From Yersinia alsatica (GTDB lineage Bacteria; Pseudomonadota; Gammaproteobacteria; Enterobacterales; Enterobacteriaceae), in contig NZ_CABHWW010000007.1 in assembly GCF_902170305.1 (NCBI RefSeq), positions 124,001 to 188,000 of the forward strand: a stretch of 64,000 nt of DNA, written 5' to 3'. Both the position numbers and the translations under genes were made by a program. Positions 2,061 to 7,184 of this stretch are shown here, piece after piece; the stretch's first letter is position 1, and each line of letters opens with the position of its first letter. The notes under the pieces were generated by a model that did no database searches, was not told the DNA's origin, and saw nothing but the letters and a program-made list of their open reading frames with translations.

Positions 2061-3452
2061 GTGACTATGAGCGCAGAATCACATTTGTTATACCGTCAGT
2101 TACCGGCAATTGATCGCCTGCTGCGTGAGCCTGAAATGGCACCATTGCTGGCAGAATATGGCTCTGTTCTATTGGCTGAAACTTTACGCCAGATGCAGTT
2201 AGAGGCCAGAGAGCATATTCGTCAATTTGATAGGTTGGCTGATTGGTGTATCGACTGGCCTGCTGCTCTACGTCACCGGTTAAGCCAACGTCAGCCCGCA
2301 TTAAAACCCGTCTTTAACCTGTCCGGTACCGTCCTGCATACCAATTTAGGCCGCGCGCTGTTGGCCGAATCTGCCATTTCCGCGGTGAATGACGCCATGC
2401 GCGGGGCCGTGACTCTGGAATATTCGCTGAGTGGCGCGCGTCGTGGTCATCGTGACCGGGCGGTCGCGGATTTACTCTGTGAATTGACCGGGGCTGAGGA
2501 TGCTTGCATCGTCAATAACAATGCTGCGGCAGTGTTCCTGATGTTAACCGTGATGGCGGCCGGGAAACAGGTGGTGGTTTCTCGTGGCGAATTGGTCGAG
2601 ATTGGCGGTGCTTTTCGCATTCCCGATGTGATGCGCCAGGCAGGCTGTGAATTAGTTGAAGTGGGGACCACCAACCGCACGCATCTGAAAGATTATCGTC
2701 AGGCTATCAATGAACATACCGGCCTGTTGATGAAGGTCCATACCAGCAATTACAGCATCGAAGGCTTTACTGCATCGGTTGCCGAGCAGCAACTGGCCAC
2801 GTTGGGGCGCGAGTTTGCCATCCCTACCGCCACCGATCTGGGAAGCGGTTCGCTTATCGATATGTCTAGCTATGGTTTACCTGCCGAGCCTATGCCGCAG
2901 CAATTGATTGTGGCGGGTGTCGATTTGGTCACTTTCTCGGGTGATAAGCTGCTGGGTGGCCCTCAGGCAGGGATAATTCTGGGTAAAAAACAGTGGATTG
3001 ACCAATTGCAGCAGCATCCACTCAAGCGGGTGTTGCGGGCCGATAAAATGACGCTGGCTGCGCTGGATGCGACTTTGCGCCTCTATCAGCAGCCAGACCG
3101 GTTGACCGAGCTATTACCGACCATGCGATTACTGACCCGCCCAGCAGAAGCTATCGCCGAGAGTGCCCAGCGGGTACGGGCTGCGTTGGCCGACCATTAT
3201 GCTCATTTTACCCTGGCAGTAGAGCCATGCTGGTCGCAGATTGGTAGCGGCTCGTTACCGGTAGATAGATTACCCAGTTGGGCGGTGACTTTTGCCCCCA
3301 AAGATGGCAGCGGCAGTGCTTTGGAAGCGCTAACCGAGCGCTGGCGCAGTTTGGCTAAACCTGTGATTGGCCGCGTCGCTGATGGGCGCTTATGGCTGGA
3401 TTTACGCTGTCTTGAGGATGAAGCAACCTTGCTCAGGGAATTGGCACCATGA
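2061..3452 (+). CDS. selA: L-seryl-tRNA(Sec) selenium transferase
   Basis: PLP enzyme that converts Ser-tRNA(Sec) to Sec-tRNA(Sec) with selenophosphate. 463 residues, as in E. coli. The N-terminal tRNA-binding part ([13 protein letters not shown]) is followed by the aminotransferase-like fold with [28 protein letters not shown] and [16 protein letters not shown]. The PLP lysine is in [15 protein letters not shown] (residue 296, equal to E. coli K295). The reading frame opens at GTG 2061; an ATG at 2067 is an equally possible start. The stop overlaps the selB start (ATGA). The gene supplies Sec-tRNA for FdoG, encoded just upstream of the window. Confidence 0.97.
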
Positions 3453-5350
3453 TTATTGCAACCGCGGGTCATGTTGACCACGGCAAAACCACACTTTTAC
3501 AGGCTATTACTGGCGTGAATGCCGATCGCCTACCCGAAGAAAAACAGCGCGGGATGACGATTGATCTGGGTTATGCCTATTGGCCGCAACCTGACGGCAC
3601 TATTATCGGGTTTATAGACGTGCCCGGTCATGAAAAGTTTTTAGCCAATATGCTTGCTGGCATAGGCGGTATCGACCATGCCCTGCTGGTGGTGGCCTGC
3701 GATGACGGCGTAATGGCACAAACCCGTGAGCATTTGGCCATTTTACGGTTGAGTGGGCATCCGACACTGACGGTCGCGCTAACCAAAGCCGATCGAGTTG
3801 ATGACGAGCGCATTAGCCAAGTGCGCCAGCAGGTGATGGCTGAAGTGGCGGCACAGGGCTGGCAAGCAGAGCAAGTGACGCTATTTGTTACCGCGGCGAC
3901 CACCTCTCTGGGTATCAGTGAATTACGCGAACATTTGGCGCACTGTTATTCGCCAGATGAAAATAACAGCCGGTTGCAACGGCGTTTTCGTCTGGCTATT
4001 GACCGCGCATTCAGTGTGAAAGGTGCCGGTCTAGTGGTGACTGGCACGGCATTGGCAGGCAAGGTCGCGGTGGGCGATACATTGTGGCTCACCGGTGGTG
4101 ATTGCCCGGTTCGAGTTCGTGGTATCCATGCCCAAAACCAAGATACTCAGCAGGCGCAAGCCGGTCAACGTATTGCCCTGAATATCAGCGGCGATATTAG
4201 CAAGCAACAGATTAATCGCGGGGACTGGCTCTTAGCGCAACAGCCGCCAGAGGCGCTAGATCGCGTGCTGGTTGTCGTTGATGCAGACGCGCCGATACAG
4301 CATTGGCAACCGCTGCATTTGCACCATGCGGCCAGCCATATCACCGGGCGTTTTTCGCTGCTCAGCAGCCCGCAACCCGCTGATGATAAACCTCAATTGA
4401 TATTGGCCGAGCTGTTACTGGATAACCCTCTTTGGCTGGCTGAGAATGATCGTTTAATCCTGCGGGATATTGCCGCGAAGAAGACCTTGGGCGGGGCGCG
4501 GGTCATTCATTTGGCGGTCCCTAAACGGGGCAAACGGCAGCCAGCATTCTTGACTTGGTTAACCGAGTTGGCGCAGGCAACCAGTGATCGTGAAGTCTTG
4601 GATTTGCATTTGACGCAAGGGCCGGTCTCGATACATAAGTTCAGTTGGGCGCGCCAGCTTAAAGACGCTGATACCGCCGCGTTGCTGGCGAGCACGAATA
4701 GCATTGTGGCCGGTGATATCGCGTTGTCACCCCCACATGCTCAGCAGGCGCAGCAGACACTATTACATGTTTTATGCTTATATCATCAGCAACATGGCGA
4801 TCAATTGGGGCTAGGCCGTGCACGTTTGCGGCGTATGGCATTGCCGACATTAGATGAGGGTTTGGTATTTCGCCTGATTGATAACTTGCTGGTGCAAGGG
4901 GCGCTAAAAAATACCCGTGGCTGGTTGCATCTACCGCAGCATGGGTTGGCATTTACCGAGCAGGAGCAGGAGTTATGGCAGCAAGTCGCTCCCTACTTTG
5001 TTGATTCTCCGTGGTGGGTACGTGATTTGGCCGTCACACTGCCAATAGATGAAGATGAGATGCGTAGCCTGCTACGAAAAGCGGCGCAACTGGGCCATAT
5101 CACCGCAATAGTTCCGGACCGCTACTATCTGAGTCAGTGTATTGAGCAGTTTGCTGATTTAGTTCGTGAGCTGGATGCCAGTCAAGGTAGCACCAGCGCC
5201 GCAGATTTTCGCGATCGGCTGGGCATTGGCCGCAAGCTGGCCATTCAGATTCTCGAATTCTTTGACCGCAGCGGATTTACCCGACGCCGGGGTAACGACC
5301 ACTTCTTGCGCGACCGAGGATTGTTTTCTCCTCCTCTGCCATCATCCTAA
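3449..5350 (+). CDS. selB: Selenocysteine-specific translation elongation factor SelB
   Basis: 633 residues. The N-terminal half is an EF-Tu-like GTPase: G1 GHVDHGKTT at residues 7-15, a T-rich switch I (RGMTIDLGY), G3 DVPGHE and G4 LTKAD. Domains II and III follow, then winged-helix domains in the last ~250 residues that in E. coli grip the SECIS hairpin of the mRNA. SelB brings Sec-tRNA(Sec) to in-frame UGA codons. It overlaps selA by 4 bp. The stop codon ends at 5350 and the first copy of the 30-bp palindrome array begins at 5351, so selB has no separate terminator. It is about 19 residues longer than the E. coli protein. Confidence 0.97.
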
Positions 5351-5546
5351 ACATCTCTTTAGATGTTTTATTCATTAAATACATCGAATTTAATGTAAAT
5401 TGAATCAAATACATAATATAAGATGTATTTAATCTCTGACACATACTTATTGATGTTTTTCGTGTTTTACACATCTTATCGTATGTTTTATCTCTCAATT
5501 ACATCTCTTTAGATGTGCTAGTCTTAGCGTACATCATAATTAATGT
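5351..5546. repeat. Seven-copy 30-bp-period palindrome array (probable HipB operators)
   Basis: Seven 16-bp imperfect palindromes, consensus ACATC-N6-GATGT, start at 5351, 5381, 5411, 5441, 5471, 5501 and 5531, an exact 30-bp period. Copies 1 and 6 are identical (ACATCTCTTTAGATGT). The others vary mainly in the 6-bp core and one half-site base. The 14-bp spacers are AT-rich and unrelated to one another. The array fills the selB-hipB gap and ends 12 bp before the hipB start. HipB-type antitoxins bind palindromes upstream of their own gene, so repression of hipBA is the natural reading. This is inferred from position and symmetry only. Confidence 0.85.
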
Positions 5547-5558
5547 CATGAGGGCCGA

Positions 5559-5873
5559 ATGAGAACACTCAATGATGTGGCGACACAGCTGAAAGAGATC
5601 CGCCAACAGAAAAAACTGAAACAATCAGATATGCGCTTAGTCAACGGCATGACGCAGCAGCAGGTTTCCAAATTTGAAAAAGGGGGGGATATTCAGCTCT
5701 CCACCTTTTTACGCATTTTGGCTGGTTTCGATCTGGAAATACTGTTAGTGACCAGAGAACAGGCACAGGAAATTCGCGCGGGCAGGATGACGACAAACAC
5801 AGTAATAGATGATGAAAACATCACAGCACAGAATGATCCCTGGCAAACAAAATATAAAAATCTGGAGGACTAG
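5559..5873 (+). CDS. hipB: HipB-type antitoxin/repressor
   Basis: 104-residue DNA-binding protein. An HTH_3 (Xre/Cro) fold covers about residues 10-65, with the recognition region MTQQQVSKFEKGGDIQLSTF. A polar C-terminal tail of ~35 residues (VIDDENITAQNDPW) is longer than the short flexible tail of E. coli HipB. In hip systems HipB binds the HipA kinase, keeps it inactive and represses the operon. It lies 12 bp after the palindrome array and 3 bp before hipA, preceded by ATGAGGGCCGA, which offers a short Shine-Dalgarno. Base composition here and in hipA is more AT-rich than selAB. Confidence 0.88.
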   Translation: MRTLNDVATQLKEIRQQKKLKQSDMRLVNGMTQQQVSKFEKGGDIQLSTFLRILAGFDLEILLVTREQAQEIRAGRMTTNTVIDDENITAQNDPWQTKYKNLED

Positions 5874-5876
5874 CTG

Positions 5877-7136
5877 ATGGCGCAGCAAGTTGAGCAAGTA
5901 GAGGGGCTGGCGCTTTATTTAGGTGATATCCGCATTGGCGTTTTGGTTCACTATACCGGTGGGCGCAATGCTTTATCGTTTGATCCTGATTATATCGCGA
6001 TGCCAGAAATACGGCGGCCAATTTTTACCTTAACTCAGCAAGTTGACCCAGATTATTTACGGAAAGTACAAATTAATAAGCAAAGATTACCACCAGTATT
6101 ATCTAATTTATTACCTGAAGGCGCGCTACGGAAGATGATGACAACACAGTTAAAAACTCATGAAGATAATGAGTTTCCGCTATTAGCGCGGGCTGGTGAG
6201 AATCTTGCTGGCGCTTTAGTTGCCCGCCCGCTGCTCAGAGGTAGTATTCCACAATGGGCACTGTCCGCTCACAATAAAATAGAAGCAGTACAGATAGATA
6301 TAAAAAATATAGCGGATAAATTTTCTTTGGCGGGTATACAGATGAAGTTTTCATCTCGTTATCAAGATGGGCGATACTTGATAACCACCGAAGTGGGTGA
6401 GGATGACTGGATTGTTAAAACACCGTCAACAGTGCATAAAAATGTTCCCGAAAATGAATACTCAGTGATGCGCCTGGCGCAAGCCATTGGCATTGAGATC
6501 CCCGAAATAAATTTGGTTTCACTAGACGAGATCGATAATTTACCTGATATCCAACTCCCCACAGGTGAGCATGCTTATCTTATCCGCCGTTTTGATCGTT
6601 CTGCAAAAGGAACAGGGCGAATACACACGGAGGATTTTGCACAAATTTTTAATTTGTATCCCAGCAAAAAATACGCAGATAAAAATTATGAACAAATTGC
6701 CGCTGTTTTATATAACGATGCTGGTGGTTTAGCCGATCTGCAACAAATGGCTCGTCGCCTATTAGGCAATATCTTATTAGCCAATGGGGATGCCCATTTG
6801 AAAAATTGGACGGTGACTTACCCTGATGGGCGTCATGCAAAGTTATCCCCTGCATATGACATTGTATGCACTAAAGTGTATATGACAAATGAGTCCGAAC
6901 TTGCATTGAGAATGGCAAAAGAGAAACAGTGGTATTTAATCAATTTTTCCACGTTCAAAAAATGGTGTGAGAGAATAGATGCGCCTTATCTGGCTATTAA
7001 GGCCCATTTAGATGATGCAATGGAAATTGCCCGTCAAACATGGCCTGATATGTTAGCCTTATTACCTATGAATGAAGCCCATAAAAAAATATTAAGGGCC
7101 CATTGGTTGCAACTACACACCGATTTTCGGCTGTAA
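5877..7136 (+). CDS. hipA: HipA-type serine/threonine kinase toxin
   Basis: 419 residues. The N-terminal HipA_N/couple domain covers ~1-110 and the HipA_C kinase fold follows. FSLAGIQMKFS contains Ser150, the same number as the autophosphorylated serine of E. coli HipA. NEYSVMRLA and RRFDR follow, then the catalytic NGDAHLKNW (Asp305) and the metal-binding LSPAYDIV (Asp328). All kinase motifs look intact, so the toxin is probably active. In E. coli HipA phosphorylates glutamyl-tRNA synthetase and causes growth arrest and persistence. The start follows a good site (CTGGAGGACTAGCTG). It forms an operon with hipB, three bases apart. Confidence 0.9.
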   Translation: MAQQVEQVEGLALYLGDIRIGVLVHYTGGRNALSFDPDYIAMPEIRRPIFTLTQQVDPDYLRKVQINKQRLPPVLSNLLPEGALRKMMTTQLKTHEDNEFPLLARAGENLAGALVARPLLRGSIPQWALSAHNKIEAVQIDIKNIADKFSLAGIQMKFSSRYQDGRYLITTEVGEDDWIVKTPSTVHKNVPENEYSVMRLAQAIGIEIPEINLVSLDEIDNLPDIQLPTGEHAYLIRRFDRSAKGTGRIHTEDFAQIFNLYPSKKYADKNYEQIAAVLYNDAGGLADLQQMARRLLGNILLANGDAHLKNWTVTYPDGRHAKLSPAYDIVCTKVYMTNESELALRMAKEKQWYLINFSTFKKWCERIDAPYLAIKAHLDDAMEIARQTWPDMLALLPMNEAHKKILRAHWLQLHTDFRL

Positions 7137-7143
7137 ATCATCT

Positions 7144-7184
7144 TTATTAAATGCTGAAGAAGAGATTCCTTCAGCATTTAATAA
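7144..7184. terminator. Bidirectional terminator between hipA and mdfA
   Basis: A perfect 16-bp inverted repeat (7144-7159 and 7169-7184, arm TTATTAAATGCTGAAG) with a 9-nt loop sits between the convergent ends of hipA and mdfA. The A/T ends of the arms give short T-runs in both directions. Confidence 0.75.

What the first reader, a model, noticed from the sequence alone, without database searches (positions are those of the whole stretch)
5351..5546. Seven palindromic operators at an exact 30-bp period in front of hipBA
Seven copies of ACATC-N6-GATGT start at 5351 + 30n (n = 0 to 6), with no drift, filling the whole selB-hipB gap from the base after the selB stop. As I recall, E. coli hipBA has four operators, unevenly spaced and with a different sequence (TATCC-N8-GGATA). 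Thirty bp is close to three helical turns, so seven dimers would line one face of DNA. This suggests a cooperative HipB filament or strongly graded derepression. The unrelated 14-bp spacers with conserved phase argue for selection on spacing.
Basis: partly seen in the sequence, partly recalled or inferred. Interest (0 to 1): 0.78.

Follow-up and report, generated by a model that had tools for sequence, protein, structure and literature searches.

The report
Phased operator array before hipBA
Seven evenly spaced palindromes sit in front of a toxin-antitoxin gene pair, and relatives in other bacteria mostly keep the same 30-base spacing while the letters of the sites change, which suggests that repressor proteins line up along the DNA at a fixed interval.

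Summary
In detail: seven palindromes at 5351+30n fill the selB-hipB gap, two perfect and five with one mismatch; 5,000 shuffles of the gap never gave more than two. The best reading is a HipB operator array. In 54 non-redundant regions upstream of hipB from one HipBA branch of Gammaproteobacteria, a test assuming a 5-N6-5 palindrome but no letters found 67 similar pairs at lag 30, in 30 of 54 loci; 100 shuffles never exceeded three at any lag. Half-sites change (ACATC, ACAAC, GCAAC, GAAAC) while 74 of 108 consecutive spacings are 30 and 15 are 29. The window holds the longest in-register run of the 54, seven sites. Two corrections: E. coli hipBA has its own 28-bp unit (28, 39, 28), seen again in 5 of 6 relatives; and at 10.5 bp per turn 30-bp steps do not share one DNA face. 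Evenly spaced HipB operators are in print for Legionella HipBST and noted for Caulobacter, so this is a new variant of a known kind. HipB binding, cooperativity and any filament are inferred, not shown.

The parts
3449..5350 (+). selB, upstream neighbour; its stop codon is directly before the first palindrome
   Evidence: ORF; SelB Pfam domains
5351..5366 (.). palindrome 1, ACATCTCTTTAGATGT, no mismatch
5381..5396 (.). palindrome 2, one mismatch
5411..5426 (.). palindrome 3, one mismatch
5441..5456 (.). palindrome 4, one mismatch
5471..5486 (.). palindrome 5, one mismatch
5501..5516 (.). palindrome 6, no mismatch, same 16 letters as palindrome 1; in many relatives the second site from hipB carries a TAATAT core, here it does not
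5531..5546 (.). palindrome 7, one mismatch, nearest to hipB
5505..5530 (+). region where the hipBA promoter -10 is likely to lie (inferred by position from relatives; the consensus scan found no + strand promoter here)
   Evidence: by-eye reading of the aligned Yersinia arrays printed; negative scan
5559..5873 (+). hipB, 104 aa, HTH_3 protein, presumed repressor and antitoxin
   Evidence: ORF; Pfam HTH_3 E 3.1e-06; phmmer to E. coli HipB E 5.9e-04
5877..7136 (+). hipA, 419 aa, HipA-type kinase toxin
   Evidence: ORF; HipA_C E 4.8e-47 and Couple_hipA E 3.4e-14

Best explanation
The seven palindromes are operators of HipB, the antitoxin encoded directly downstream. A HipB dimer (alone or with HipA) reads each ACATC-N6-GATGT site, and neighbouring dimers are set at a fixed 30-bp interval by contacts between the bound complexes, so that occupancy is cooperative and hipBA transcription is shut off by a run of adjacent complexes over the promoter, which most likely lies across the last two sites. 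Loss of HipB thins the run and releases the promoter. Shown here: the sites, their register, the conservation of register with changing letters across the clade, the link of the array to hipB rather than to the upstream gene. Inferred: that HipB binds, that binding is cooperative, that HipA takes part, where the promoter lies in the window.
For: Register and clustering beyond chance. Clade-wide: 67 similar palindrome pairs at lag 30 in 30 of 54 non-redundant loci, next lag 60 with 38 pairs, then 29 with 8; 100 shuffles never above 3 at any lag. With five half-site types and at most one mismatch: 162 sites against 11.4 in shuffles; 74 of 108 spacings up to 80 bp are 30, 15 are 29; shuffles gave at most one 30. 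Letters differ by group: ACATC in Yersinia, ACAAC in the Vibrio/Photobacterium/Shewanella/Morganella set, GCAAC or GAAAC in a third set. In four relatives checked the upstream gene region encodes other families (GNAT, Asp-Al_Ex permease, ERCC4, FGGY kinase) and not SelB, so the array follows hipB. In the six Yersinia genomes with hipB, the one whose hipB is broken and lacks a hipA match has no site left. Spacing is held though spacers drift: in the window half-sites are 0.89 identical between repeats, spacers 0.36 against 0.34 expected; in nine four-site arrays half-sites 0.97, spacers 0.45 against 0.31 expected (these nine were chosen for 30-30-30 spacing, so only the drift, not the register, is a result there). 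E. coli HipB binds four operators cooperatively and bends DNA 70 degrees (passages of PMC3920265); the HipA N-terminal subdomain takes part in dimerization during DNA binding (passage of PMC6581861).
Against: No binding data. 14 of 54 loci show no in-register pair of sites at one mismatch (4 with no site, 10 with runs of one): e.g. L031, L036, L054 none, L053, L056, L057 and L065 one. Some of these have arrays with other letters (L040, L041 at 30). 29-bp, 40, 49-51 and 32-bp steps exist, one of 29 in the intact Yersinia relative L003, so exact 30 is not obligatory. In L002 six sites at 30 remain although only end pieces of hipA match, so HipA is not needed for the array to persist, or the loss is recent. 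The motif does not follow the recognition helix by a clean code: L032 has V like Yersinia but ACAAC sites. No sigma-70-like promoter was found on the + strand in the window.
Confidence: 0.85

Rival explanations
1. HipB binds each site independently; the even spacing is an inherited trace of tandem duplication of a 30-bp unit and has no mechanical role.
For: Copy number differs between relatives in near-whole units: 7, 6, 5, 2 in Yersinia, 3 to 6 elsewhere. Palindromes 1 and 6 share all 16 letters.
Against: Spacers and cores within the window array are at chance identity while length is kept; across the clade spacers have drifted to 0.45 identity in nine arrays and 30 remains the commonest step. 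E. coli-type hipBA keeps a different constant, 28.
Confidence: 0.12
2. The sites bind another regulator, not HipB (for example a regulator of the selA-selB operon or a terminator-like or RNA element at the end of selB).
For: The array touches the selB stop codon; no binding data exist.
Against: The array is found before hipB with other upstream genes; no tandem pair elsewhere in the genome; no terminator-like site in 5200-5700, no Rfam match.
Confidence: 0.04
3. The spacing is set by the promoter, not by protein contacts: in relatives the right half of one operator supplies a -35 (TTGxxx) and the core of the next a -10 (TAATAT) exactly 17 bp away, which needs a 30-bp step between those two sites.
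For: TAATAT-like cores in 45 of 162 sites against 8.5 expected from composition, 25 of 45 in the second site from hipB; in 26 of 26 such pairs at 30 bp the hexamer 17 bp upstream begins with TTG.
Against: Partly circular: TTG is part of the half-sites GTTGT and GTTGC, so the 17 bp follows from motif plus step. It explains one step, not the further upstream ones. The window has neither: GATGT lacks TTG and none of its seven cores is TAATAT-like.
Confidence: 0.25

Closest known systems
E. coli K-12 hipBA operators
   Same: Four palindromic HipB operators before hipB, bound cooperatively (passage of PMC3920265); a fixed unit of 28 bp between paired sites, repeated in relatives.
   Different: TATCC-N8-GGATA instead of ACATC-N6-GATGT; steps 28, 39, 28 instead of six times 30; HipB and HipA only distantly alike (HipA 22% identity; HipB E 5.9e-04).
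Legionella HipBST operators (PMC10653801, passages seen)
   Same: Three operators, evenly spaced in nearly all species, HipB binding shown by gel shift in that paper.
   Different: 53-bp gaps between operators, six-base repeats, three-gene system, no cooperativity claimed.
Caulobacter hipBA1 and hipBA2 promoters (PMC7029023, passage seen)
   Same: [quoted passage not shown] coli higher-order complex.
   Different: Their figure S8 was not available here, so copy number and interval could not be compared.
YefM-YoeB paired palindromes (PMC3920265, passage seen)
   Same: Toxin-antitoxin repressor whose cooperative binding depends on the spacing of palindromes.
   Different: Two palindromes 12 bp apart, unrelated repressor fold.

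Membership tests
HipBA type II toxin-antitoxin module | HipA-type kinase with HipA_C and N-terminal Couple_hipA domains | tested here: met
   HipA_C 160.8 bits against cut-off 30.5, Couple_hipA 53.6 against 22.5
HipBA type II toxin-antitoxin module | Kinase residues conserved with E. coli HipA | tested here: met
   In the six-sequence alignment with E. coli HipA, S150, K181, E194, D305, N310 and D328 (window numbering) are invariant; their roles are recalled, not from a call
HipBA type II toxin-antitoxin module | Small HTH antitoxin gene directly upstream | tested here: met
   hipB ends 5873, hipA starts 5877; HTH_3
E. coli-type HipB (NCBIfam NF007271 equivalog) | Score above the curated cut-off | tested here: not met
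   30.1 bits against cut-off 79
E. coli-type hipBA operators | TATCC-N8-GGATA sites | tested here: not met
   Window sites are ACATC-N6-GATGT; E. coli sites confirmed as TATCC-N8-GGATA
HipB autoregulatory operator array | HipB binds the sites and represses the operon | not testable with these tools
   Needs binding and reporter experiments
HipBST three-gene system | Separate HipS and HipT genes | tested here: not met
   Single 419-aa HipA with both domains

The most novel reading that the evidence does not exclude
HipB-HipA of this branch assembles on DNA as a regular nucleoprotein superhelix with a lattice constant of 30 bp that is kept while the base sequence it reads is free to change; in relatives the promoter is written into the lattice (-35 in one operator, -10 in the next), and array length, up to seven here, sets the threshold for toxin release. 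With the 70-degree bend reported for E. coli HipB, a 30-bp step would give about 4.2 sites per left-handed turn, that is more than one and a half turns for the window array.
Probability: 0.3. Interest if true: 0.7.

Novelty: new variant of a known kind. Interest (0 to 1): 0.5.

Why it matters
It turns a vague statement, that HipBA forms higher-order complexes on its promoter, into a measurable constant: 30 bp in this branch, 28 bp in the E. coli branch. Natural arrays of two to seven sites, with different half-sites but the same step, are ready substrates for asking whether neighbouring HipBA complexes touch, whether HipA bridges them, and whether site number tunes the threshold for release of a persistence toxin.

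Tried and rejected
Considered and rejected: a simple tandem repeat (Tandem Repeats Finder found none at score 30; spacers at chance identity); an RNA element or terminator; a wider regulon in the own genome: four perfect single sites lie outside the array against two for the reversed-pattern control, no tandem pair outside it, so no evidence for one. No relative of HipB in the phage collection at E 1e-5. A clean code linking the HipB recognition helix to the half-site was looked for by eye and not found. A promoter could not be assigned in the window.

Rows dropped before counts: from the 64 upstream regions, 10 were dropped as near-duplicates by shared 10-mers (L005, L024, L026, L028, L029, L042, L060, L072, L075, L076). 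Left out before that: L009, L011, L015 (HipA about 34-39% identical, other branch), L039 (hipB beyond the contig end), L079 (no hipB frame found), L006 and L014 (decayed, no sites), L013, L049 and L058 (same loci as L005, L005 and L001), and L008, L010, L012, L016 (weak HipB matches, not examined for arrays). Of 220 plasmid records with a HipA match 8 were fetched. The genome-contig scan used two short peptide patterns and returned 32 loci, so the survey is a sample of the branch, not a census; loci share ancestry and are not independent.

A first form of the E. coli-type scan stopped with an error after one locus and was rerun in full. Papers asked for and not held: PMC4150777 and PMC7502270; what is said of the E. 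coli HipBA-promoter structure comes from other papers' passages. Of the supplementary figure in PMC7029023 nothing was seen.

Full report
What is there. Seven 16-bp palindromes start at 5351, 5381, 5411, 5441, 5471, 5501 and 5531. They begin one base after the selB stop at 5350 and end 12 bases before the hipB start at 5559. Two are perfect ACATC-N6-GATGT, five have one mismatch. Shuffles of the gap that keep dinucleotides gave a mean of 0.017 sites and never more than two in 5,000 trials. hipB encodes a 104-aa HTH_3 protein with a weak but clear likeness to E. coli HipB; hipA encodes a 419-aa HipA kinase in which the residues invariant with E. coli HipA include S150, K181, E194, D305, N310 and D328.

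Same genus. Six of 25 same-genus genomes, the window's own included, have a HipB match at E up to 1e-17, in all six behind selB. Arrays: window 7; L002 6 at exact 30; L003 5, steps 29, 30, 30, 30; L004 2 at 30; L005 5 plus a damaged one, steps 30, 30, 30, 48; L014 none. State of the genes: window and L003 have full hipB and hipA; L002 has an open hipB but only end pieces of hipA match; L004 has a TAG inside hipB and a gapped hipA; L005/L013 has hipB in two frames and a gapped hipA; L006/L014 has hipB in two frames and no hipA match in the stretch held. Thus the array goes with hipB and is gone where the locus is most decayed, although it outlives hipA in L002.

The branch. A HipA alignment found 32 relatives in named genomes, whole-genome searches added 13 besides the own among 369 genomes of the class and 8 besides the own among 394 of the order, and 8 plasmid loci were fetched. 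Upstream regions of hipB were cut for 64 loci and 54 remained after removing near-duplicates. A test that assumes a 5-N6-5 palindrome but no letters counted pairs of similar palindromes at every lag from 12 to 79: 67 at lag 30 (30 of 54 loci), 38 at 60, 8 at 29, few elsewhere; 100 shuffles gave at most three at any lag. With five half-site types and at most one mismatch there are 162 sites against 11.4 in shuffles, and of 108 consecutive spacings up to 80 bp, 74 are 30 and 15 are 29, the rest being 26, 31, 32, 40-41, 49-51 and 59-60. With two mismatches allowed the picture is noisier but the same: 79 at 30, 19 at 29. 37 of 54 loci have at least one step of exactly 30; the window has the longest run in register (7 sites); the next are 5 in L027 and 5 in L002, the latter 6 if its most distal, more divergent site is counted. 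At two mismatches L027 also counts seven sites, but not all in register.

Letters change, the step does not. Yersinia uses ACATC, the Vibrio, Photobacterium, Grimontia, Moritella, Shewanella, Morganella and Chimaeribacter loci ACAAC, a third set GCAAC or GAAAC, one locus GAAGC. Within the window array spacers are 0.36 identical between repeats against 0.34 expected, half-sites 0.89. In nine arrays chosen for three steps of 30, half-sites are 0.97 and spacers 0.45 identical between loci (0.31 expected). Length is thus kept while sequence drifts. That is the argument for selection on spacing; it is inference, since no neutral indel rate was measured. Results against: 14 of 54 loci have no in-register pair at one mismatch, and 29-bp and longer steps occur.

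Comparison branch. E. coli K-12 has TATCC-N8-GGATA at -134, -106, -67 and -39 from hipB, steps 28, 39, 28. Six HipB relatives of the E. coli type (of 197 genomes searched) give 28, 39, 28; 28, 37, 28; 28, 28; 55; 28; and 28 with other letters. So 5 of 6 share a step of 28. A fixed step seems to be a property of each HipB branch: this is the point most worth following.

Geometry. At 10.5 bp per turn a 30-bp step leaves the next dimer 51 degrees behind, so seven dimers would wind around the DNA rather than line one face; alignment would need 10.0 bp per turn. With the 70-degree bend reported for E. coli HipB (passage of PMC3920265) a simple bent-rod estimate gives about 4.2 sites per superhelical turn. 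The mixed steps of 30, 40-41 and 49-51 in the third set fit a rule of whole turns near 10 bp. All this is estimate.

Promoter. In relatives TAATAT-like cores occur in 45 of 162 sites (8.5 expected), most often in the second site from hipB (25 of 45). In 26 of 26 pairs at 30 bp with such a core, TTG stands 17 bp upstream, inside the previous operator. Part of this follows from the motif itself, so it is a suggestion: the promoter is written into two neighbouring operators. It does not hold for the window, whose half-sites lack TTG and whose cores are not TAATAT-like; by position its promoter should lie across palindromes 6 and 7, but the scan found none on the + strand.

How it likely works. 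HipB dimers, alone or with HipA, occupy the palindromes; contacts between neighbours favour a 30-bp step; the last two sites cover the promoter and the others stabilise the assembly. Precedent: E. coli HipB binds four operators cooperatively with HipA as co-repressor (passage of PMC3920265); [quoted passage not shown] Legionella HipB binds three evenly spaced operators (passages of PMC10653801); Caulobacter hipBA1 and hipBA2 have inverted repeats at intervals that the authors call consistent with the E. coli complex (passage of PMC7029023). My searches of the held library listed no paper that by its title or abstract start describes this array or a 30-bp HipB step; most listed papers were not opened, and two central papers are not held.

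Verdict. Real, strongly non-random, conserved across a branch, and best filed as a new variant of a known kind: HipB operator arrays. The step constant per branch and the seven-site array are the new points.

Noticed in passing
L002, L004, L005/L013, L006/L014: hipBA behind selB is in different stages of decay in four of the six Yersinia genomes that have hipB; in L002 hipB stays open with six operators although only end pieces of hipA match.
   Followed up: partly
G000:C23:230498-230704 (L015): A second HipBA-like pair of another branch in the own genome (HipB 25% identical, HipA about 33%); its upstream palindromes showed no 30-bp register.
   Followed up: partly
window 7144-7184: Perfect 16-nt inverted repeat with 9 nt between the arms just after the hipA stop, likely a terminator between hipA and the convergent gene.
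   Followed up: no
L040, L042, L046, L047, L052, L068, L069, L077: In the third set the most distal site is 40-41 or 49-50 bp from the next one and the proximal sites are 29-30 apart, as if whole helical turns of about 10 bp were allowed.
   Followed up: partly
L085 upstream of hipB: A HipB of the E. coli type with other palindrome letters (TACGC-N4-GCGTR) but again a 28-bp step.
   Followed up: no
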